Shown: in pieces, positions 11,955-44,813 of the stretch | Layout: every line of letters begins with the position of its first letter | Numbering within the stretch: the first letter of the stretch is position 1 | Origin: Chloroflexales bacterium ZM16-3 | Lineage (GTDB): Bacteria > Chloroflexota > Chloroflexia > Chloroflexales > Chloroflexaceae | Length of the DNA stretch: 64,000 nt | Direction of reading: 5' to 3' | Assembly: GCA_004138175.2 (NCBI GenBank) | Contig: RYFE02000003.1 | Coordinates: 62,001 to 126,000, forward strand | Notes under the pieces: model-generated | Database searches by the model: none | What the model was told of the DNA's origin: nothing | What the model saw: the letters and a program-made list of their open reading frames with translations, nothing else | Made by a program: the position numbers and the translations under genes

Positions 11955-12755
11955 TTAGGCTCGCATAATGCGGCTCGTCATCGTCTGCTGGGCGCGCAGC
12001 TCCAGCGACGCGTCGAGGGGGGCGATTGTCACATCGGCGCCGTAGCGGCGGCGCATGGCCATGTCGATCATCTGGTCGGTGAGCTGCGGGTTCTTCGGCA
12101 GCAGCGAGCCGTGCAGGTAGCAGCCGATGGTGTTGCGGTAGGCCGCGCCGCCGTGCCCGTCCTCTCCATTGTCGCCGTGGCCTGCCAGGACACGCCCGAG
12201 GCTGCGCACCCCCGGCCCATGGTAGGTGCGACCGCTGTGGTTCTCGAAGCCCACCAGCCTGATGGGGGTTGGGGGTTGGGGGTTGGGGGCTGGGTCTTTC
12301 GTGCCAGCCTCCAACCCCCAACCCCCAACCCCCAGCTCAACCACAATATTCCCGATCAGGCGCTTGCTGCCGCCGACCGTGTGGACATCGAGGGCGCCCA
12401 GCCCCGGCAGGCGCTCGCCGGTGTGGGTGATGAAGTAGTGGCCGAGCAGCTGGTAGCCGCCGCAGATCGCCAGCAGCACCAGCCCGTCGTCGATCGCGGC
12501 GCGCAGCCCCGGCCCCTGGCGCTCCAGCAGGTCGCTGGCGATCAGCGACTGCCCGCTGTCCTGCCCGCCGCCGAAGAAGGCCAGGTCGAACGCGGCCCAG
12601 TCCACCACATCCCCCGGCTCCACCGGCGTTACCTCTAGGTCGATCCCGCGCCACAGGCAGCGCTGGCGCAGGGCGATCACGTTGCCGCGATCTCCATACA
12701 CGCTCATCTCGGCAGGGTAGAGGTGGGCGAGGCTCAGGCGGTAGGTGTCTGTCAT
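11955..12755 (-). CDS. gatD: Lipid II isoglutaminyl synthase glutaminase subunit GatD-like (CobB/CobQ-type GATase)
   Basis: 266 residues from ATG 12755 (MTDTYRLSLAHLYPAEMSVYGDRGNV, the usual GatD N-terminus). The nucleophile Cys is in LLAICGGYQLLG, with a C-terminal His in GCYLHGSLL and the family motif GFENHSGRTY. GatD releases ammonia from glutamine for amidation of lipid II with MurT, but no murT gene is adjacent. Residues about 141-164 (GGWGLEAGTKDPAPNPQPP) are encoded by an inverted pair of GGGGGTT/AACCCCC heptamers inserted just before the GFENH motif. A 35-bp direct repeat covers the start codon and gives a second in-frame ATG at 12827. Confidence 0.8.
   Translation of the reverse strand: MTDTYRLSLAHLYPAEMSVYGDRGNVIALRQRCLWRGIDLEVTPVEPGDVVDWAAFDLAFFGGGQDSGQSLIASDLLERQGPGLRAAIDDGLVLLAICGGYQLLGHYFITHTGERLPGLGALDVHTVGGSKRLIGNIVVELGVGGWGLEAGTKDPAPNPQPPTPIRLVGFENHSGRTYHGPGVRSLGRVLAGHGDNGEDGHGGAAYRNTIGCYLHGSLLPKNPQLTDQMIDMAMRRRYGADVTIAPLDASLELRAQQTMTSRIMRA
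12264..12335. repeat. Inverted heptamer arrays (GGGGGTT / AACCCCC) inside gatD
   Basis: The left arm has three GGGGGTT units plus GGGGGCT. After about 13 bp (12292-12303) the right arm is its complement, with three AACCCCC units. The region is translated in frame within GatD and could form a long hairpin. The AACCCCC unit recurs in rimO. Confidence 0.9.
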
Positions 12756-19185: not shown

Positions 19186-20577
19186 ATGAAATATCATATT
19201 GTCACCCTTGGCTGTCCCAAGAATGCCGTCGATAGCGAAGGCATGGATGGCATTCTCGCTGGCGATGGCCACACCCAGGTCTCAGGCATCGATGACGCCG
19301 ATGTGATCATTGTCAATACCTGTAGCTTTATCGCCGCCGCCCGCGATGAGACCCTGAGCGTGCTCGGCGAGCTCGGCGCTCAGAAGCGCACCGGCCAGCG
19401 CCTGATCGCTGCCGGCTGCATGGCCCAGAGCCACGCCGCACTCGTCTCCGGCGTGGACGGCGTGGACGGCACCCTCAGCACCCAGCAGTGGATGCGGATC
19501 GGCGAACTGGTGGGGCAGGGCCAGCGAACGACCAACGACGAACGACCAAAGAATGGGCGCGACATCCCGGTGATCGGCCTTGAGCCAGTCTCATCCAACC
19601 CCCAACCCCCAACCCCCAACTCATACGCCGACTGGCGCACGGCCCAGATCCGGCGCACCCGCAGCGCGCCCTCAGCCTACCTAAAGATCTCCGATGGCTG
19701 CAACCTGCGCTGCGCCTTCTGCACTATCCCCAGCTTCAAGGGCGATATGGCCTCAAAGCCGGTCGGTGGCATCCTCGCCGAGGCCCAGGAGCTGGCCTCT
19801 CGCGGCGTGCGTGAGATCGTCCTCGTCGCCCAGCACCTCACCGACTATGGCCGCGACCTGAAGATTACGGATGGTCTGGCCACCTTGCTCAATGAGCTCT
19901 GCCAGGTGCTGCCCGAGAACGTCTGGCTGCGCCTGATGTACGCATACCCGCACGGGATCTCCGAGCGGCTCATCCAGGTGATGGCCGAGCGCAGGCAGGT
20001 GCTGCCCTACCTCGACATGCCGCTCCAGCACGCTCACCCCGACACGCTGCGCCGCATGCGCCGCCCGCCAGACACCGATCGCACGCGCGGGGTCATCCGC
20101 GACCTGCGCGCCGCCATGCCCGATATCGCGATGCGCTCGACCTTTATCGTCGGCTTCCCCGGCGAGACGAGCGCCGAGTTCAAGGAGTTGCTGGCCTTCC
20201 TCGACGAGGTGCGCCTTGATCGGGTCGGTGCCTTTCGCTACTCGCAGGAGCCAGGCACGCACGCCGCAACCCTGGCGGGCCAGGTGCGCCCCCAGGTGAT
20301 CGAGAAGCGCTGGCATGAGCTCATGCAGCTCCAGCAGGGGATCTCGCGCGAGCGCAGCCAGCGCTGGCTTGGGCGAACTATCGATGTGCTTGTGGAGGGC
20401 CGTGGGATCGCCGATGACGGACGCCCGCTTGCGCTGGGTCGGTCGTTTCGTGACGCGCCCGAGGTCGATGGCCAGGTTTTTGTATGGGGGGAGCCGCCTA
20501 TAGGGGAGATTGTGACGGTACACGTCACGCAGGCGACGGATTATGATCTGTGGGGGGAAGTGAATGTTGAACGCTGA
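19186..20577 (+). CDS. rimO: Ribosomal protein S12 methylthiotransferase
   Basis: 463 residues. The N-terminal UPF0004 domain starts YHIVTLGCPKNAVDSEGM. The radical-SAM cluster motif is CNLRCAFC. The phrase EIVLVAQHLTDYGRDL is the RimO form, and a C-terminal TRAM domain follows. It adds a methylthio group to Asp of S12 using two Fe-S clusters. Residues about 113-145, between the two domains, are encoded by heptamer arrays (RTTNDERPKNG from GAACGAC-type units, then SSNPQPPTPNS from AACCCCC). The last few codons also fall inside an ATTCAAC-type inverted array. Confidence 0.92.
   Translation: MKYHIVTLGCPKNAVDSEGMDGILAGDGHTQVSGIDDADVIIVNTCSFIAAARDETLSVLGELGAQKRTGQRLIAAGCMAQSHAALVSGVDGVDGTLSTQQWMRIGELVGQGQRTTNDERPKNGRDIPVIGLEPVSSNPQPPTPNSYADWRTAQIRRTRSAPSAYLKISDGCNLRCAFCTIPSFKGDMASKPVGGILAEAQELASRGVREIVLVAQHLTDYGRDLKITDGLATLLNELCQVLPENVWLRLMYAYPHGISERLIQVMAERRQVLPYLDMPLQHAHPDTLRRMRRPPDTDRTRGVIRDLRAAMPDIAMRSTFIVGFPGETSAEFKELLAFLDEVRLDRVGAFRYSQEPGTHAATLAGQVRPQVIEKRWHELMQLQQGISRERSQRWLGRTIDVLVEGRGIADDGRPLALGRSFRDAPEVDGQVFVWGEPPIGEIVTVHVTQATDYDLWGEVNVER
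19525..19617. repeat. Two heptamer arrays in frame inside rimO
   Basis: The first array (19525-19550) has GAACGAC/CAACGAC/GAACGAC/CAAAG units. The second (19597-19617) has three AACCCCC units. Both are read through in frame, between the UPF0004 and radical-SAM domains. Confidence 0.9.
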
Positions 20578-34000: not shown

Positions 34001-34723
34001 GGGGTTCAACTTGATATTAATGTCACATCTACCTTTATGTCGCCACCAATGGCCCCGGTGACTATCGGCCCGACTGGTCCGTGCATACTGCTGCGCCTGC
34101 CCACCCCCTTCCTGCGTGCGCCTTTCTTACCGCTGATATTGAATATGAACAGCGGCGCGGCCCCCACGCCGACCGCTATGCCCACGCGCACGCCAACTGC
34201 CACCGTGCGGCCCACGAGCGCACCGACGGTGACGAGTACGCCGACGATCACGCCAACCGCCACGCCGACTCTTACGCCGACGATCACGCTCACACCCACG
34301 CCGACGGATACGCCAACGGAGACAGCGACGCCGACGAAGAAGCCAAAGCCTCGCTCGACGAGCACGGCGGTGCCGCCGACGAGTACGCCGGTGCCGGTGC
34401 CGCCGACGAGTACGCCGGTGCCGCCGACGAATACGCCGGTGCCGCCGACGAATACGCCGGTGCCAGCGCCGACGAGTACGCCGGTGCCGCCGACGAGTAC
34501 GCCGGTGCCGCCGACGAGCACGCCAGTACCGCCGACGAGCACGCCAGTGCCGCCGACGAGCACGCCAGTGCCGCCTACGAGTACGCCGGTGCCGCCGACG
34601 AGCACGCCAGTACCGCCGACAAGCACGCCGGTGCCGCCGACGAGCACGCCGGTGCCGCCGACGAGCACGCCGGTGCCGCCGACGGACGTGCCCCGCCCCA
34701 CCCGCGAGCCGGTGACAAATTAG
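31046..34723 (+). CDS. Secreted surface protein with Calx-beta repeats and Thr/Pro-rich stalks
   Basis: 1225 residues. An N-terminal hydrophobic segment (about 20-40) follows a basic start. Next come a Thr/Pro-rich stalk (to about 305) and about five Calx-beta domains (about 310-890), each ending in a variant of ITNDD/ILNDD, with acidic calcium-binding loops. A DUF11-like domain follows, then the hydrophobic FLRAPFLPLILN segment common near the C-terminus of Chloroflexota exoproteins, and a tail of repeated PVPPTST units. It is probably a long, calcium-stabilised adhesin or sheath protein. It overlaps the sensor kinase gene by 53 bp. The ATG at 31046 is the only convincing start. Confidence 0.82.
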   Translation: MNTHSQSHNRTEPRRRRDGLVWLVLLALLIALLPIGCVADLALRFVTPSNAPFKDVGSSSGLSSYLPFPAQSYAAPDPNMPNIRETEITRREQTPVGLRGAVTVAQVVEVAPPVSQIDPPTPTPTAVAATRPTATKEPSPTDVAGGANRSPTPTDVVLISGSTATSGPTLTPSPPTPRTPTATTTILPTNGIATPTRTLVSLPTKTSTGLPISTLTLVPVVSPSPTVPLVNTPTLPLVNTPTLPLVPTATEAPTVAPTDVPTDTPTEIPTNTLMPTLSPTPTQVPPPPPTSTPTQTPVPPVLSIAVEPLFVSGVKEGDAGITTTVTLNISLSSTSLQPVTVNYSTANGTATTANSDYLAASGTITFAPGQTLKPITVVVNGDAVAELNETFTVALSAPTNATIGTPSATITILNDDRPRVSISPASVTVTEGTSATGTTPMVFTVTLLDPASAAVSLSYAAAGSGTNPAMIGTDVTTASASGTLIFPAGSTAGTTQTITLQVVQDNIVEPNETLTVSITAPAPASAQIVTGSATGTITDDDFSTITIDSPSITEGDSGTKVLTFTVSLPAPVPTGYTVTVNYGPTVNGTATAGSDYVALAAGSVDITSGQQTGQFVVTINGDTTYELGETFTISLTSVSVGGFSAPIIGATGTGTITNDDTLTVSIDSPSWQEGYANSTQNFTVSLNAQASAITSAVTVNYSGTVDGLATAGSDYIALSAGQVTIAANSISQVIPVTIIGDTIYEPNEDFSITLTGASAGVTLGTTLGTGTILNDDFPTITVSSPSVAEGAAGITTTLNFVATFTPPTTSGGVLTYSTVNSGKAIAGSDYVQVTNATVSFLAGATTVNLPVTINGDDLIEPDETFSVELTGVGSPASGIGTIQNDDATGLAGFNKIAEITSVASPVIGVRYTITVTNPNTFMSLTVTDNLAPAYTIISVSSTPAGATFTGNQVTWGPNNLALGEVLTITIDGTYTPATCQTFYNPGVQLDINVTSTFMSPPMAPVTIGPTGPCILLRLPTPFLRAPFLPLILNMNSGAAPTPTAMPTRTPTATVRPTSAPTVTSTPTITPTATPTLTPTITLTPTPTDTPTETATPTKKPKPRSTSTAVPPTSTPVPVPPTSTPVPPTNTPVPPTNTPVPAPTSTPVPPTSTPVPPTSTPVPPTSTPVPPTSTPVPPTSTPVPPTSTPVPPTSTPVPPTSTPVPPTSTPVPPTDVPRPTREPVTN
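34369..34690. repeat. 21-bp tandem repeat encoding PVPPTST
   Basis: About fifteen in-frame copies of a 21-bp unit (GTGCCGCCGACGAGCACGCC plus one base), coding a seven-residue Thr/Pro stalk. Copy number is likely to vary between strains. Confidence 0.85.
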
Positions 34724-35275: not shown

Positions 35276-38200
35276 CTATCCGACGACGACATTTACCAGC
35301 TTGCCGGGCACGACGATCACCTTGCGGATGGCCTTGTCGCCAACGTGGCTCTTGACCCGGTCGCTCTCCATGGCCAGGGCGCGCAGCTGATCTTCGCTGG
35401 CGCCAACGGGCACCGTCAGCTTATCGCGCACCTTTCCGTTCACCTGTAGCACTACCTCGATCTCATCCTCGGCGGCCATAGCCAGGTCTGCCACCGGCCA
35501 TGCCTGTTGGTGGACGCTGTAGGCGTGGCCGGTGCGTGACCACAGCTCCTCGGCCATATGCGGGGCCACCGGGGCGATCAGCAGCATCAGCGTCTCGACC
35601 GCATCGGCCCACGCCGACGTGCCCGCCAGCCCGCCGTCGCGGGCCTTGTACATGGCGTTGGTAAACTCCATCAGCGCCGAGATGATCGTGTTGAACTTAA
35701 ACTCGGCGATGTCATGCTCAACGCGGATGATCGTCTGGTGGGTGACGCGGCGCAGCTGGCGCTCGCTAAACTCGCCAGACTGGCTGACCTCGTCGCCAGT
35801 GCTCAGCACGATCCGCCAGACCCGATCCAGCCAGCGGCGCACGCCGGGCACGCCGTCGGTGTTCCAGGGCACCGCCGCTTCGAAGTCGGAGATGAAGCAC
35901 TCGTAGCCGCGTAGGGCGTCGGCCCCGTGACTCGCCACCACCTCATCGGGCGTGATCACATTGCCCTTCGACTTTGACATCTTCTCGATGACGATCTGGC
36001 CATCCACCTCGCGGGCGGGGGCCAGGATCAGGCCCTGGTTGCGCAGGCGCTGGAAGGGCTCAACGAAGGGCACCACGCCCAGGTCGTACAGCACCTTCGT
36101 CCAGAAGCGCGCGTACAGCAGGTGCATCACCGCGTGCTCGGCCCCGCCGACGTACATGTCCACCGGCAGCCAGTAGTCCAGCTCCTCAGGCTTCGCGATC
36201 TGGCCGGGGTTCTTCGGGTCGGTGTAGCGCATGTAGTACCAGGACGAGCAGGCGAAGGTGCCCATCGTGTCGGTTTCGCGGCGGCCCGTGCGACCATCGG
36301 GCAGAGTGACACGCACCCAGTCGTCGATCAGCGCCAGCGGCGACTCGCCAGTGGCCGTGGGCTCGTAGCTCTCGACGCCGGGCAGGGTTATTGGCAGCTG
36401 CTCGTTGGACAGGGGCATCTCCAGGCCATCCTCGGCGTGGATGATCGGGATCGGCGTGCCCCAGTAGCGCTGTCGGCTGATCAGCCAGTCGCGCATCTTG
36501 TAGTTCAGGCGGCCCTGTCCCTGGCCCCGCTCCTCCAGGTAGGCGATTGTCTTGCTGATTGCCTCGTTGCCGGGCAGGCCGTTGATCGGCCCGGAGTTGA
36601 TCGGGGTGCTGTACTCGCTATGGTAGATTAGATCCTTATAGGCCGGTACGGTGGCCAGGTAGGCCATAAAGCTAGGCAGGGCGTCGATCTTCAGCTCGGT
36701 GCGGATGCGGCCCGTGATCTGCTCATCGGCGTCCGCCGAGTCGAAGGCGATCACCGCGTCGGGGAAGATCGCCAGCCAGCCTGAGCCGACCACCTCCGTC
36801 CAGCCATCGGTCAGGTGGGGCCGCACCAGATCAGCGTAGGCACGGGCCTGGGTGCCAGTCAGTTCAACCGTTAGGGCACCGCCCTCGTCACTGAACGTGT
36901 AGCCTGCGGCGCGCAGCATCTCGGGCAGGGCCGTGTCGTAGGAGCCGGGGTGCAGCAGCGAGCGAGCCGCGTCGTCGCTGCGGGCGATCACCGGGATGAT
37001 CGGCAGGCCAAACTTCAGAGCGAAGGCGAAGTCGCGCTCATCGTGGGCAGGCACGGCCATGATCGCGCCGGTGCCGTAGCCCATCAGCACATAGTCAGCC
37101 ACCCAGATCGGGATGCGCGCACCGTTCACCGGGTTCACCGCATAACCGCCAGTGAAGATGCCGGTCTTCTCCTTGTCCTCCACGGGCGTCACGATGGCGC
37201 TCTTGATCTTCGCCTCGGCCACATAGGCATTCACAGCGTCGCGCTGGGCGGCGCTGGTCACGCTCGGCACCAGGGGGTGCTCGGGCGACAGCACCATAAA
37301 GGTGGCCCCCCACAGCGTATCCGGCCGGGTGGTGTAAACAATAATTTTTGATTGCAGATTGTTGATTGCAGATTGATTCTGGCTAGAATGCTCGGCTGCA
37401 ACCTGCAATCTAAAATCTGCAATTTCAAAGATCACCTCGGCGCCCTGCGAGCGGCCGATCCAGTTGCGCTGCATCGTCACGATCCGGCTCGGCCAATCGA
37501 CCGTGTCCAGGTCGCGATCCAGCCGGTTGGCGTAGGCCGAGATGCGGAAGAACCACTGCTTCAGCGTCTTCCGCTCAACCAGCGCGCCGGAGCGCCAGGC
37601 GGTGCCATCGGGCAGCACCTCCTCATTCGCCAGCACCGTCTTATCTACCGGGTCCCAGTTCACTGTGGCCTCGCCCCGGTAGGCCAGGCGGAAGCGCTTC
37701 AGGAAGTCCTGCTTCTGTAGCGGGGTGTAGGCGTTCCAGGTATCGGCGCTCACCTGCTGCTCCGACATGGCCAGGGCCAGCTTGCCGGTGCCGTGCTCGG
37801 CCAGTTCGGCTTCCAGTTCGGTGATCGGGCGGGCCTTATCGGCGCGCATATCGTACCAGGAGCCATACAGACGCAGAAAGATCCACTGCGTCCAGTGGTA
37901 GTACTCCGGCGTCGAGGAGTTAATCTCGCGGCTCCAGTCGTAGCTCGCGCCGATCAGGTTCATCTGCCGCTTGTAATTGTCCGCGAAGCGGCGGATCAGC
38001 ACCGCCGGGTTGGTCTTCATCTTGATCGCCGCATTCTCGGCGGGCAGGCCGAAGGCGTCCCACCCCATCGGGTGCAGGACGTTATAGCCCTTCATGCGGT
38101 AGTGGCGGGCGACAACGTCGGTAGGCACGTAGTTGCGGCAGTGGCCCACGCTCAGCCCCTCGCCGCTCGGGTAGGGGAAGAAGTCTAAGATGTAGTACTT

Positions 38201-38320
38201 CGGGCGCTCGTCGGCCGGTGCCGTCCGGTACAGGTCGTCGGCTGCCCAGCGATCCTGCCACTTCTTCTCAATGGCGGACGGGTCGTAGCGCTCGGTCTTA
38301 TCGGGCTTTGCGTCGCTCAT
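35276..38320 (-). CDS. leuS: Leucyl-tRNA synthetase
   Basis: 1014 residues, longer than usual. The class I signatures are present: FPYPSGEGLSVGHCRNYV (HIGH-like GHC) and MSKSKGN (KMSKS). The editing CP1 domain includes IVYTTRPDTLWGATFMV. Just before this strand, residues about 298-327 (EIADFRLQVAAEHSSQNQSA and following) are encoded by an inverted pair of AATCTGC-type heptamers, in frame. Start ATG 38320 with AAGGAG upstream, chosen because the family N-terminus (YDPSAIEKKWQDRW) follows. A leader ORF ends four bases before it. Confidence 0.95.
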   Translation of the reverse strand: MSDAKPDKTERYDPSAIEKKWQDRWAADDLYRTAPADERPKYYILDFFPYPSGEGLSVGHCRNYVPTDVVARHYRMKGYNVLHPMGWDAFGLPAENAAIKMKTNPAVLIRRFADNYKRQMNLIGASYDWSREINSSTPEYYHWTQWIFLRLYGSWYDMRADKARPITELEAELAEHGTGKLALAMSEQQVSADTWNAYTPLQKQDFLKRFRLAYRGEATVNWDPVDKTVLANEEVLPDGTAWRSGALVERKTLKQWFFRISAYANRLDRDLDTVDWPSRIVTMQRNWIGRSQGAEVIFEIADFRLQVAAEHSSQNQSAINNLQSKIIVYTTRPDTLWGATFMVLSPEHPLVPSVTSAAQRDAVNAYVAEAKIKSAIVTPVEDKEKTGIFTGGYAVNPVNGARIPIWVADYVLMGYGTGAIMAVPAHDERDFAFALKFGLPIIPVIARSDDAARSLLHPGSYDTALPEMLRAAGYTFSDEGGALTVELTGTQARAYADLVRPHLTDGWTEVVGSGWLAIFPDAVIAFDSADADEQITGRIRTELKIDALPSFMAYLATVPAYKDLIYHSEYSTPINSGPINGLPGNEAISKTIAYLEERGQGQGRLNYKMRDWLISRQRYWGTPIPIIHAEDGLEMPLSNEQLPITLPGVESYEPTATGESPLALIDDWVRVTLPDGRTGRRETDTMGTFACSSWYYMRYTDPKNPGQIAKPEELDYWLPVDMYVGGAEHAVMHLLYARFWTKVLYDLGVVPFVEPFQRLRNQGLILAPAREVDGQIVIEKMSKSKGNVITPDEVVASHGADALRGYECFISDFEAAVPWNTDGVPGVRRWLDRVWRIVLSTGDEVSQSGEFSERQLRRVTHQTIIRVEHDIAEFKFNTIISALMEFTNAMYKARDGGLAGTSAWADAVETLMLLIAPVAPHMAEELWSRTGHAYSVHQQAWPVADLAMAAEDEIEVVLQVNGKVRDKLTVPVGASEDQLRALAMESDRVKSHVGDKAIRKVIVVPGKLVNVVVG
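37341..37427. repeat. Inverted heptamer arrays in frame inside leuS
   Basis: GCAGATT, GTTGATT, GCAGATT and GATTCTG on the left; TGCAACC, TGCAATC, TAAAATC and TGCAATT on the right, complementary to the left. The unit matches the AATCTGC arrays upstream of the KQ-motif gene and aspS. Confidence 0.88.
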
Positions 38321-39226: not shown

Positions 39227-41023
39227 CTATGGCGCTACTACCACCTCGCCAAGCTCGGCTTGTCCGCCGATCAAGTTGCCGTCCTCTGCCCATGCGGGCA
39301 GGTGGATGTTATCTTTCTCGGGGCGGTACAGTCCGACGATCAGCCGGTACGGGCCGGGCGACAGACCCTCGGGCAGTGCGATCCGGTGCTGGTCAGCCAC
39401 CCAGTCGCCCGGCGTCCAGTAGGTGAAGGGCAGGGTCGCGTCGCGGGGCCGGCTCTCGCTGCGGGCCAGCGTCTGATCTGCGGCATCGCGCAGCTCCAGA
39501 AACACCGTCCAGCTGCGCGGGATGGGCTCCAGGCTATGCCATGTCAGGGTGATCGGCAGCTCCGCGCCGGGGGCGACCGGGCCATCGAGACGCCAGCCGC
39601 GCAGCACCACGCCCCGCTCCCAGTCATTGGCGAAGCGGATGTAGATCGGCGTGCCAAGGCTCGCCTGTGCCTGCGCCTGCGGCAGGGCCGCCCATGTGTA
39701 GGCCGGCGCGATCACGCCGAAGGGCATGTAAAGAGCGAGGGCGATGAGGATAATGCTGAATGCTGAATGTTGAATGTTGAATGCTGAGTGCTGGGTAGGA
39801 TTAATCCTATCTATACCTCTGGCGAGCAGGATGCCAACCGCCCCGATTGCCGGGAAGAGCATACGCCCCTGCCATGCCACCAGCCCGGTCGTCGCCGCAA
39901 AGGACAGAACCCAGACCAACGCCATCGCCAGCGCGATCAGCGGCCCGGCCCACAGCCCCTTGACTCCCGACTCCCGACGCCTGACTGCCCAACCCCCAAC
40001 CCCAGCCCCTCCCACCAGCAGCCCGTAGATCCACAGCGCCCAGGCGGGCGGCGTCACGCTCATCCAGCCGAATCGCGCCCAGAACGAGCCAAACAGCTGC
40101 CCGAGCGCCCCTGCCCACGCCGCCGGGTCGCCCCAAGCGAAGGGCTGACCGGCGAACTCCGCGCTGAACATGCTCGCCCCGAAGAGATCGCCATAGAGCT
40201 GCCAGTTGCGCAGGTACCACCAGCCCGCCACGAGCGCCGAGGTCAGCCCCCAGGCCAGCGTATACCCCGTCATACGGCGCAGGTCGCCCCGCGCGGCCCG
40301 CCAGCTGGCCCAGATCAGCAGCGGGCCGAGCAGCAGCGCGCTCTGCTTGGTGAGCTGGGCCAGGCCGAAGAGCAGCCCGATGACGACGAACCCCGGCCAG
40401 TTGGGCGTAGATCTCCTAGCCAGCGCCAGGCAGCGCCAGAGGATCGCCGTGCCCAGAGCGGCCAGCAGCGGGTCATTGCTCACCAGGGCGCAGCTGAAGA
40501 TGAACTGCGGGTTGAAGGCCACCAAGGCGGCCGCCAGCAGCGGGGGAGATCGCCGCCCCGGCCAGAGGGCGCGGGCGGCCAGGTAGGTACACAGCACCGT
40601 GGCGGCCCCCCAGAGGGCCGAGACGGCCCGGGCTATGCGCCAGACCAGCGTACTGCCTTGCCAGGGCCAGTACTCGCGGCTGCCGCGCATAAACGCCGCA
40701 GCCTGATCGCCGCCAGCCCAGACGAACGCCCGGTTGGCAGTCAGCACAATCTGCCGGTCATCGGCGGGGAGCCATGCCACCGCAGGCGCGTCCAGCAGGT
40801 AGGCCATGGGCGGCTGATGGCCCTCGCCGGGCACATCGCTCTCTGTCGGGGTGGTGCGCTGCACCGGCAGCCGCCACTCGCGGGCCAGAAACAGCACATA
40901 GGCCAGGTGTCCAGGCTCATCAGGCCCCTCTCCCAGCGGCACATTCGCGTTATAGACGCCGCAGAGAGCAAGGAAGAGTACGAGCAGGCTGAGGATTGGC
41001 CAGCGCTGAGAGAGTCTCATCAT
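39227..41023 (-). CDS. GT39-like integral membrane glycosyltransferase
   Basis: 598 residues. The start NVPLGEGPDEPGHLAYV carries the acidic motif of PMT/ArnT-type enzymes that use lipid-linked sugars. Many hydrophobic helices follow to about residue 440. The C-terminal 150 residues form a soluble domain (ITLTWHSLEPIPRSWTVFL, GPYRLIVGLYRP). Two in-frame heptamer arrays fall within it, at residues about 341-354 and 410-423 (TQHSAFNIQHSAF). Start ATG 41023 or 41020. It follows pheS on the same strand, separated by an octamer array. Confidence 0.8.
   Translation of the reverse strand: MMRLSQRWPILSLLVLFLALCGVYNANVPLGEGPDEPGHLAYVLFLAREWRLPVQRTTPTESDVPGEGHQPPMAYLLDAPAVAWLPADDRQIVLTANRAFVWAGGDQAAAFMRGSREYWPWQGSTLVWRIARAVSALWGAATVLCTYLAARALWPGRRSPPLLAAALVAFNPQFIFSCALVSNDPLLAALGTAILWRCLALARRSTPNWPGFVVIGLLFGLAQLTKQSALLLGPLLIWASWRAARGDLRRMTGYTLAWGLTSALVAGWWYLRNWQLYGDLFGASMFSAEFAGQPFAWGDPAAWAGALGQLFGSFWARFGWMSVTPPAWALWIYGLLVGGAGVGGWAVRRRESGVKGLWAGPLIALAMALVWVLSFAATTGLVAWQGRMLFPAIGAVGILLARGIDRINPTQHSAFNIQHSAFSIILIALALYMPFGVIAPAYTWAALPQAQAQASLGTPIYIRFANDWERGVVLRGWRLDGPVAPGAELPITLTWHSLEPIPRSWTVFLELRDAADQTLARSESRPRDATLPFTYWTPGDWVADQHRIALPEGLSPGPYRLIVGLYRPEKDNIHLPAWAEDGNLIGGQAELGEVVVAP
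39754..39795. repeat. Heptamer array, unit TGCTGAA/TGTTGAA, in frame in GT39 gene
   Basis: Six consecutive 7-bp units (TGCTGAA twice, TGTTGAA twice, TGCTGAG, TGCTGGG). This is the complement of the ATTCAAC/ATTCAGC unit at 20.6 kb. Confidence 0.9.
39962..40004. repeat. Heptamer array, units GACTCCC then AACCCCC, in frame in GT39 gene
   Basis: GACTCCC twice, GACGCCT, GACTGCC, then AACCCCC and AACCCCA. It encodes VGGWAVRRRESGVKG in the membrane enzyme. Confidence 0.85.
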
Positions 41024-44075: not shown

Positions 44076-44813
44076 TTACTCTTTGCCGTCGAGTTCTTCG
44101 TCGTCGAGTTCCTCATCGTCGAGTTCCTCGTCATCGAGTTCTTCGTCGTCAAGCTCCTCGTCGTCGAGCTCCTCGTCATCGAGCTCCTCGTCGTCAAGCT
44201 CTGGCTCAGCGCTTGCTTCGCTGCCGCTTGTCGCCGCCGCAGTCTTTGCCAGCCTCGGCTGCTGGGCCTGGGCCTTCTGCGCCTGCTGTGCGGCCTTGAT
44301 AACCTTGGCGGTGGGCGCGAGCAGCAGCGAGAGCACGCGGCCCTCCATCAGCGGCTTCTGCTCAACTACCGAGATATCGCGGAGCTGCTCTGCGATCTGC
44401 TCTAGCATCTTCCGCCCAATGTCGGGGTGGGCCATCTCGCGCCCGCGGAAGCGCACATTGAACTTAACCTTGTCGCCTCGCAGCAGGAAGCGCCGCGCCT
44501 GGTTGGCCTTCACCGTCATGTCGTGATCGTCGGTCTTGGGCATCAGGCGGATCTGTTTGAGCTCAGCCTGCTTCTGGTTCTTGCGCGCCTCGCGTTCTTT
44601 CTGACTCTGCTCGTAGCGGAACTTGCCGTAGTCGAGCAGACGGCAGACGGGCGGCACAGCGTTAGGAGCCACCTCAACGAGGTCAAGGCCGCGCTCTTCT
44701 GCAAGAGCGACTGCCTCGCGCACAGACACAATTCCGACCTGTGTCCCGTTCTCGTCGATCAGGCGAACCTCACGCGCGCGGATACGGTTGTTGATGCGAA
44801 ACCGGTCTCTAAT
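44076..44813 (-). CDS. infC: Translation initiation factor IF-3 with ATT start and acidic tail
   Basis: 245 residues from ATT at 44813, which has AAGGAG at seven to eight bases, the rare start by which infC classically self-regulates. An in-frame GTG at 44852 is less likely. N-domain (FRINNRIRAREVRLID), linker, and C-domain (MTVKANQARRFLLRGDKVKF) are normal. After about residue 170 comes an Ala/Gln-rich segment and then seven LDDEE repeats, an acidic tail not found in standard IF-3. It prevents subunit joining and proofreads start codons. It heads the infC-rpmI-rplT operon. Confidence 0.95.
   Translation of the reverse strand: MRDRFRINNRIRAREVRLIDENGTQVGIVSVREAVALAEERGLDLVEVAPNAVPPVCRLLDYGKFRYEQSQKEREARKNQKQAELKQIRLMPKTDDHDMTVKANQARRFLLRGDKVKFNVRFRGREMAHPDIGRKMLEQIAEQLRDISVVEQKPLMEGRVLSLLLAPTAKVIKAAQQAQKAQAQQPRLAKTAAATSGSEASAEPELDDEELDDEELDDEELDDEELDDEELDDEELDDEELDGKE
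44090..44194. repeat. 15-bp tandem repeat encoding LDDEE in infC
   Basis: Seven head-to-tail 15-bp units with small third-base changes, coding the acidic tail of IF-3. The silent variation between units implies the acidic peptide itself is retained by selection. Confidence 0.9.

What the first reader, a model, noticed from the sequence alone, without database searches (positions are those of the whole stretch)
37341..37427. In-frame heptamer hairpin inserted in the leuS editing domain
About 30 residues beginning EIADFRLQV and ending NNLQSK, just before the conserved strand IVYTTRPDTLWGA, are encoded by an inverted pair of AATCTGC-type arrays. The enzyme is essential, so the insertion must be tolerated at a surface loop. 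It shows the arrays invade coding DNA without breaking the frame.
Basis: partly seen in the sequence, partly recalled or inferred. Interest (0 to 1): 0.6.

Follow-up and report, generated by a model that had tools for sequence, protein, structure and literature searches.

The report
Hairpin repeat inside an essential enzyme
A hairpin made of seven-letter DNA repeats sits in frame in a probably flexible surface loop of a bacterium's leucyl-tRNA synthetase, and close relatives have either no insert or an unrelated hairpin of exactly the same length at that spot, so the loop looks like a tolerated slot whose repeat has been exchanged during evolution.

Summary
Confirmed. The leuS insert is 81 nt (window 37346-37426, minus, residues 299-325): an inverted pair of degenerate GATTGCA/AATCTGC arrays, in frame in the editing domain, folding far better than shuffles (z about -5). 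Of 30 LeuRS loops read, 22 have 7 residues there. Three (own genome, a congener, a species of another genus) carry the heptamer hairpin; two congeners carry an unrelated near-perfect GTAAGGGCGC palindrome of exactly the same length (+20 residues). The leuS tree without the loop rejects either insert type as one clade. The heptamer inserts share irregular units and a loop core seen with heptamers nowhere else among 18 matches in 61 genomes, and are more alike than silent sites. So the slot was refilled or exchanged, not filled once.

Period-7 arrays are genome-wide: 85 loci in 460 kb, 14 inside predicted genes. At 10 of 11 mapped in-gene sites the sister genome has an array or palindrome (4 same word, 3 other, 3 palindrome) against 16 of 615 random gene intervals; once the loop is inverted.

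Inverted heptamer arrays, in-frame palindromes and replacement of repeat classes are each published; their combination in protein genes is a new variant. The exchange mechanism is unresolved.

The parts
35276..38320 (-). leuS, leucyl-tRNA synthetase, 1014 aa, intact frame
37346..37426 (-). 81-nt in-frame hairpin insert, residues 299-325 (net +20 residues against the 7-residue loop of most relatives read)
37399..37423 (-). 5' arm (coding sense) of degenerate GATTGCA-type heptamers
37376..37398 (-). loop between the arms; the core pattern GCAGCCGAnCATnCnnnCC, which covers most of it, has heptamer arms only at leuS of G000, G001 and G015 (3 of 18 matches in 61 genomes)
37351..37375 (-). 3' arm (coding sense) of AATCTGC-type heptamers
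12263..12334 (-). companion case: TGGGGGT/CCAACCC heptamer hairpin in frame inside a CobB/CobQ-like glutamine amidotransferase gene (11955-12755); its 10-nt loop 12294-12303 is inverted in sister G004
19595..19620 (+). companion case: CCAACCC array in a linker of a MiaB/RimO-type (UPF0004, Radical_SAM, TRAM) gene (19243-20577); a further degenerate array at 19527-19549
39752..39793 (-). companion case: AATGCTG array in frame in a 598-residue frame (39227-41023) with only a weak, below-cut-off DUF2142 match; sister G004 has an AAAAGGT/ACCTTTT array pair at the same place

Best explanation
The segment is a passenger: an in-frame copy of a genome-wide class of inverted heptamer arrays (DNA hairpins) that is translated as about 27 residues and tolerated because it only lengthens a beta-hairpin turn at the start of the LeuRS editing domain. 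It stays in frame because its total length is a multiple of three and neither strand of the word GATTGCA/AATCTGC contains a stop codon. Shown: the hairpin, the frame, the empty and alternative states in relatives, the conflict between insert type and gene tree, and the same pattern (same site, same or different hairpin) at other in-gene sites. Inferred: surface exposure, neutrality, translation into the mature enzyme, and that one slot has been re-occupied or exchanged several times, probably by short-tract recombination between species or by hairpin-templated copying rather than by a sequence-specific transposase.
For: Of 30 loops read, 22 are 7 residues long, 5 are 27, and 3 have other lengths. 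The three heptamer inserts share irregular units and loop core; the core pattern has 18 matches in 14 of 61 genomes, and only the 3 at leuS of G000, G001 and G015 have heptamer arms. Insert identity 80.2, 84.0 and 86.4% exceeds four-fold silent-site identity 67.7, 59.5 and 56.3% for the same pairs. The leuS tree without the loop rejects {G000,G001} (p-AU 5.7e-10), {G003,G004} (8e-58) and {G000,G001,G015} (4e-57); at least 4 state changes on the 13 labelled of 14 rows. Array density: 85 loci in 460 kb; among periods 4-15, period 7 and its multiple 14 stand far above the rest. In-gene sites mapped to G004: 10 of 11 occupied versus 16 of 615 random gene intervals; all 11 length differences are multiples of 3 (one site, C1 61417, is at a gene end and is no test of frame). 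Loop confidence and position.
Against: No protein-level or fitness data. The heptamer arms keep pairing (z -5.1, -6.1 and -4.1 in the three LeuRS) although the protein need not care, so selection on, or active maintenance of, the hairpin is not excluded. Stop-free words are not enriched in genes (11 of 14 versus 52 of 71, p = 1.0), so the frame argument explains tolerance, not choice. Exact +20 in both insert types is unexplained. G000+G004 has only 81/77 support (0.80 and 0.19 in the DNA and protein trees). The palindrome pair G003-G004 shows no excess over silent sites (76.5 against 73.2%). G015's leuS lies on a 3957-base contig, though its flanks group with G026 at 100/100.
Confidence: 0.72

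Rival explanations
1. Independent insertions: different hairpin elements have landed separately in each lineage in one of the few tolerant loops; no exchange between species.
For: The loop is permissive: three relatives have 13-, 16- and 35-residue loops that do not fold better than shuffles (z -0.44, 0.96 and 0.07). Different words at one site occur elsewhere. The start GTAAGGGCGCAGCAGTCGC of the G003/G004 palindromes is also seen in other G004 copies, so these two could be separate insertions of one family.
Against: Heptamer inserts of G000, G001 and G015 share irregular units and a loop core not found with heptamers elsewhere, so they probably have one origin, yet they are not a clade. Both insert types give exactly +20 residues.
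Confidence: 0.3
2. In-place hairpin turnover: slippage, template switching and recombination between the arms rewrite the hairpin at a fixed site, converting one word or palindrome into another without excision.
For: Perfect loop inversion between sisters at the amidotransferase gene (10 of 10 nt). Intermediate words inside arrays such as GGGAGTC-GGGAGTT-GGGGGTT. Exchanged sites of equal or near-equal length: C1 196683 (91/91), 313023 (82/82), 16369 (100/97), and 202832 (113/113, where the words are only one base apart). A perfect 31-bp stem in G003 with a different interior from the likewise long stem of G004.
Against: Only 1 of 11 comparable loops is inverted, 2 are the same and 8 are unrelated. 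Drift cannot easily turn a heptamer array into the GTAAGGGCGC palindrome; at 8 of 33 sites with arrays in both genomes no unit is shared, and in 7 of these the nearest units differ at 2-3 bases, as for random pairs. Other exchanged sites differ in length by up to 450.
Confidence: 0.3
3. The segment is a functional LeuRS extension under selection.
For: Insert more similar between genera than silent sites; always +20 residues in five genomes.
Against: Sequence is unrelated between the two types; G002 of the same genus has the 7-residue loop; low-confidence loop in the model.
Confidence: 0.06
4. RAYT-type (Y1) transposase mobilises the arrays.
For: G000 has 4 Y1_Tnp matches, 3 over the family cut-off.
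Against: G004 (1341 pattern hits) and G001 (647; a 94%-complete draft) have no Y1_Tnp match, while G012 has 11 matches and 5 pattern hits. GTAG/CTAC feet are not consistent: 4 of 47 hairpins against 3.5% expected.
Confidence: 0.06

Closest known systems
Heptanucleotide stem-loop P6b of the Nostoc trnL (tRNA-Leu UAA) group I intron (PMC4476775; outline with abstract and passages seen)
   Same: Seven-nucleotide repeats on both sides of a hairpin; one repeat class has replaced the other at the same site repeatedly and independently.
   Different: One intron, no protein; here in-frame in protein genes, genome-wide, and also exchanged with non-heptamer palindromes.
GGGAATC / GGGGA(T/C)T heptamer arrays of Xanthomonas and Nostoc (PMC4692102; passages seen)
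   Same: Dispersed heptamer arrays; 70 and 75 convergent inverted pairs in two Xanthomonas genomes; 11 and 7% overlap genes at least partly; 83% of repeats in the same gene context between the two.
   Different: The paper treats one word per genome; here many words per genome and different words at the same orthologous site.
GTAG/CGTC REPs inside genes (PMC3733652; section 15 and passages seen)
   Same: REP dimers or groups encode 20-30 residues inside genes, including tRNA synthetases; different REPs lie at about the same site of recB in two Xanthomonas species; GTAG repeats reported in Chloroflexi.
   Different: The heptamer insert has no GTAG tag and array number does not track Y1 transposases; the palindrome of G003/G004 looks closer to this kind but starts GTAA.
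Rickettsia palindromic elements (RPE; mentioned in PMC3733652 passages, otherwise recalled)
   Same: Palindromes in frame within genes that likely encode functional proteins.
   Different: Sequence-defined families of about 100-150 bp (recalled); no homology test done here.

Membership tests
Dispersed heptanucleotide tandem repeats (STRR-like) | Seven-base period, many dispersed copies | tested here: met
   Among periods 4-15 in 356 kb: period 7, 102 runs; its multiple 14, 62; others 0-13. 557 pattern hits versus 14 for the reversed control in G000. The leuS copy itself is degenerate and below the run threshold.
Dispersed heptanucleotide tandem repeats (STRR-like) | Same word as the cyanobacterial STRR families | not tested
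   No STRR sequence was compared.
GTAG REP | GTAG/CGTC tag at the foot of a 20-40 bp palindrome | tested here: not met
   Feet of the leuS hairpin are TTTGAAATTG and CAAAAATT. Only the GTAG/CTAC tag was counted genome-wide: 4 of 47 hairpins, 3.5% expected at random. G003/G004 inserts start GTAA, related copies GTAG or GTAA.
GTAG REP | Associated RAYT (Y1) transposase | tested here: not met
   No Y1_Tnp match in G001 and G004, both rich in arrays; 4 in G000.
Rickettsia palindromic element | Sequence homology to RPE families | not tested
   Only the window was scanned against Rfam at gathering cut-offs: 0 matches; whether Rfam holds RPEs was not checked.
In-frame palindromic insert in a protein gene (as for RPE and intragenic REP) | Open frame, length multiple of three, absent in orthologues | tested here: met
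Intron or intein | Conserved catalytic core; removal from RNA or protein | tested here: inconclusive
   81 nt with open frame and no Rfam match in the window argue against it; removal itself cannot be tested here.

The most novel reading that the evidence does not exclude
Certain positions, including codons of essential genes, are hairpin slots: some process recognises DNA hairpins by shape and swaps one hairpin for another of unrelated sequence in place, sometimes keeping the length, so that a species' set of slots is older than the repeats that fill them.
Probability: 0.2. Interest if true: 0.82.

Novelty: new variant of a known kind. Interest (0 to 1): 0.52.

Why it matters
Orthologous in-gene sites give a clean assay for how bacterial hairpin repeats spread and turn over: the protein frame constrains each event and the gene around it dates it. 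Repeated replacement of one palindrome by an unrelated one at the same codon would be hard to explain by sequence-specific transposition and points to a structure-driven process that can be tested. It also warns that short low-complexity blocks in proteins of these bacteria may be DNA-level passengers rather than protein features.

Tried and rejected
Hairpin loop = native loop codons: a PSSM of 22 native 21-mers against the inserts gives shuffles as good in 32 of 2000 (G015), 102 (G001), 1006 (G000), 578 (G003) and 130 (G004) at any phase, and 15, 40, 411, 207 and 65 of 2000 in frame. For the amidotransferase loop p is 0.09-0.84 in forward orientation against four native loops. Suggestive in G015 at best; not claimed.

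RAYT mobilisation: not supported. Enrichment of stop-free words in genes: none. Terminator role by gene orientation: intergenic arrays tandem 47, divergent 13, convergent 9 against intergenic bp 39238, 19349, 5582; no clear signal. Recombination tract around leuS in G015: third-position identity to G000 within 40 alignment columns of the insert 0.637 against 0.596 overall, so no visible tract beyond the insert. Loop inversion as the general rule: 1 of 11. Description of such arrays in Oscillochloris: none seen in the listings (open-licence papers only; one search listed 8 of 21,939).

Limits of the counts. Gene calls are my own codon-usage script, not a standard gene finder. One search gave readable loci for 30 of its 61 genomes (its cap), best matches first, so more distant relatives are under-represented. 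One search mapped 11 of 15 in-gene and 38 of 68 intergenic array sites, and 615 of 750 and 239 of 500 control intervals; leuS is not in these counts because its arrays fall under the threshold. Intergenic sites: 29 of 38 occupied in G004 (16 same, 7 other word, 6 palindrome) against 52 of 239 controls, but intergenic spacers are short, so co-location there is weaker evidence. 'Other word' uses the commonest heptamer; by the stricter test of any shared unit, 8 of 33 sites with arrays in both genomes share none, and one of those is one base apart. That G004's genes stay open at these sites was seen only for the amidotransferase, methylthiotransferase, cyclase and leuS genes; elsewhere only the length was checked.

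Full report
What is there. leuS runs on the minus strand at 35276-38320 and encodes an intact 1014-residue LeuRS. Residues 299-325 are encoded by an inverted pair of degenerate heptamer arrays, arms 37351-37375 and 37399-37423, 88% complementary. The coding strand folds at -34.6 kcal/mol as RNA and -21.4 as DNA, z -5.12 and -5.05, none of 200 shuffles as good. The Pfam editing-domain model covers residues 285-451.

Where it sits in the protein. Most relatives have 33 residues from NWIG to TTRPDTLWG; here there are 53. The extra residues lie between two strands, 290-300 and 325-330, of an AlphaFold model (mean pLDDT 87.1, 39-sequence alignment), with mean pLDDT of 65 and 48 for residues 301-310 and 311-320; short helices are drawn there at low confidence. 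T. thermophilus LeuRS (1h3n) has a short turn at this place (alignment). Surface exposure is inferred; no coordinates were measured.

Relatives. All 61 genomes searched have a LeuRS match; 30 gave a readable locus (the cap) and all 30 loops were read. The loop is 7 residues in 22, 27 in five, and 13, 16 and 35 in one each. The five are G000 (own), G001, G003 and G004 of the genus and G015 of another genus. G002 of the same genus has 7 residues; G005's match begins at residue 473, past the loop. G000, G001 and G015 have the heptamer hairpin. G003 and G004 have instead a near-perfect GTAAGGGCGCAGCAGTCGC... palindrome with stems of about 30 bp (G003 -70.9 kcal/mol, z -14.3; G004 -70.4; stem of 30). 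Both kinds give exactly 27 residues. Among 38 distinct segments from loci L025-L084, mostly Bacteroidota, the same stretch is 34 long in 35 and 36, 42 and 60 in the others.

History of the slot. A codon tree of 14 leuS genes without the loop puts G000 with G004 (81/77) and G001 with G003 (100/100); holding G000+G001, G003+G004 or the three heptamer carriers together is rejected (p-AU 5.7e-10, 8e-58, 4e-57), and the three states need at least four changes on the 13 labelled rows. The first trees agree in topology, with weaker support for G000+G004 (0.80 DNA, 0.19 protein). The heptamer inserts nevertheless look to have one origin: they share irregular units and a loop core. The core pattern has 18 matches in 14 of 61 genomes; all 18 were read, and only the three at leuS of G000, G001 and G015 have GATT/AATC heptamers within 60 nt. 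Only exact matches to the 15 fixed bases were sought. Insert identities of 80.2, 84.0 and 86.4% (G000-G001, G000-G015, G001-G015) exceed four-fold-site identities of 67.7, 59.5 and 56.3%; the palindrome pair G003-G004 shows no such excess (76.5 against 73.2%). So the heptamer insert is younger in common descent than the gene around it, or conserved by something other than the protein; the flanks of G015 show no clear transferred tract.

Genome-wide context. Among periods 4-15 in 356 kb, 102 runs have period 7 and 62 have 14; others 0-13. In 460 kb (C1, C13, window) I find 85 array loci; 14, in 12 genes, lie wholly in predicted genes although genes cover 82-87% of the sequence, so genes are avoided but not spared. 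Forty-seven hairpins pair an array with an inverted partner over loops of 1-175 nt. The 12 host genes include a class III cyclase, a MiaB/RimO-type enzyme, a CobB/CobQ-like amidotransferase, porphobilinogen deaminase, an MgsA-type ATPase, a 2-oxoacid dehydrogenase acyltransferase, an ABC transporter and an AMP-binding enzyme; one has no Pfam match and one only a weak one. The GATT pattern has 557 hits in G000 (control, pattern read backwards: 14), 1341 in G004 (control 3), 1348 in G005 (control 118) and 0 in G002, and is found in 42 of 61 genomes; in some distant genomes the control outnumbers it. GTARGGGCGCAGC has 46, 437 and 9 hits in G000, G004 and G002.

Same site, other hairpin. Sister genome G004 was aligned to G000 over C1 and the window part of C51. 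Of 11 mapped in-gene array sites, 4 have the same word in G004, 3 another word, 3 a palindrome of at least 11 bp and 1 nothing; 16 of 615 random mapped gene intervals have an array or palindrome. Four further in-gene sites could not be mapped. All 11 length differences are multiples of three, one of them at a gene end. In the cyclase gene one site carries AATCTGC-type arrays in G000, G004, G001 and G005 but not in G002 and G003; a second site carries GGGAGTC arrays in G000, AATGTTG in G004 and G003, a GTGGCAG-like stretch in G001 and nothing in G002, and was not readable in G005. Intergenic examples with conserved flanks are C1 16369 (AATCTGC to CAGGGGA) and 196683 (AATCTGC to a GTAAGGGCGC palindrome). 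In the amidotransferase gene the 10-nt loop is the exact reverse complement in G004, the only inversion among 11 comparable loops.

Mechanism. Most likely the insert is a tolerated passenger in a turn that accepts extra residues. What moves and exchanges the hairpins is not shown. Y1 (RAYT) transposases do not track array number. Loop inversion and perfect stems with differing interiors fit recombination or template switching at hairpins (inference; inversions associated with palindromes are known from the chloroplast trnH-psbA spacer, PMC2903610, search listing only). The conflict of insert type with tree fits exchange between species or replacement in place.

Known relatives of the phenomenon. 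Inverted heptamer arrays, including intragenic ones, are published for Xanthomonas and Nostoc (PMC4692102, passages). Replacement of one heptanucleotide hairpin class by another at one site is published for the Nostoc trnL intron (PMC4476775, abstract and passages). REP dimers of 20-30 residues inside genes including tRNA synthetases, and different REPs at about the same site of recB, are published (PMC3733652, one section and passages). What I have not seen (listings; open-licence papers only) is the combination: many heptamer words and unrelated palindromes alternating at the same codons of protein genes. Hence: new variant of a known kind.

Noticed in passing
window 12294-12303 (gene 11955-12755, minus): 10-nt hairpin loop inside a conserved amidotransferase gene is the exact reverse complement of that in sister G004, frame kept.
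   Followed up: yes
L130:12127-13635 (G000 C1 312127-313635): A protein with molybdopterin-dehydrogenase FAD domains and 2Fe-2S domains in one frame has heptamer arrays between its domains (residues 298-312 and 400-423); arrays may mark a gene fusion point.
   Followed up: no
G002 (same genus) versus the other five members: G002 has no match to the GATT heptamer pattern while the other five have 95 to 1348, a natural comparison for what starts or stops the arrays.
   Followed up: no
L191-L196, cyclase residues 1005-1090: At one codon position different species carry different heptamer arrays; in G000 the insert itself looks duplicated in tandem.
   Followed up: partly
window 34356-34684 and 44087-44201: Longer tandem repeats (21-base and 15/45-base units) of a different kind from the heptamers.
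   Followed up: no
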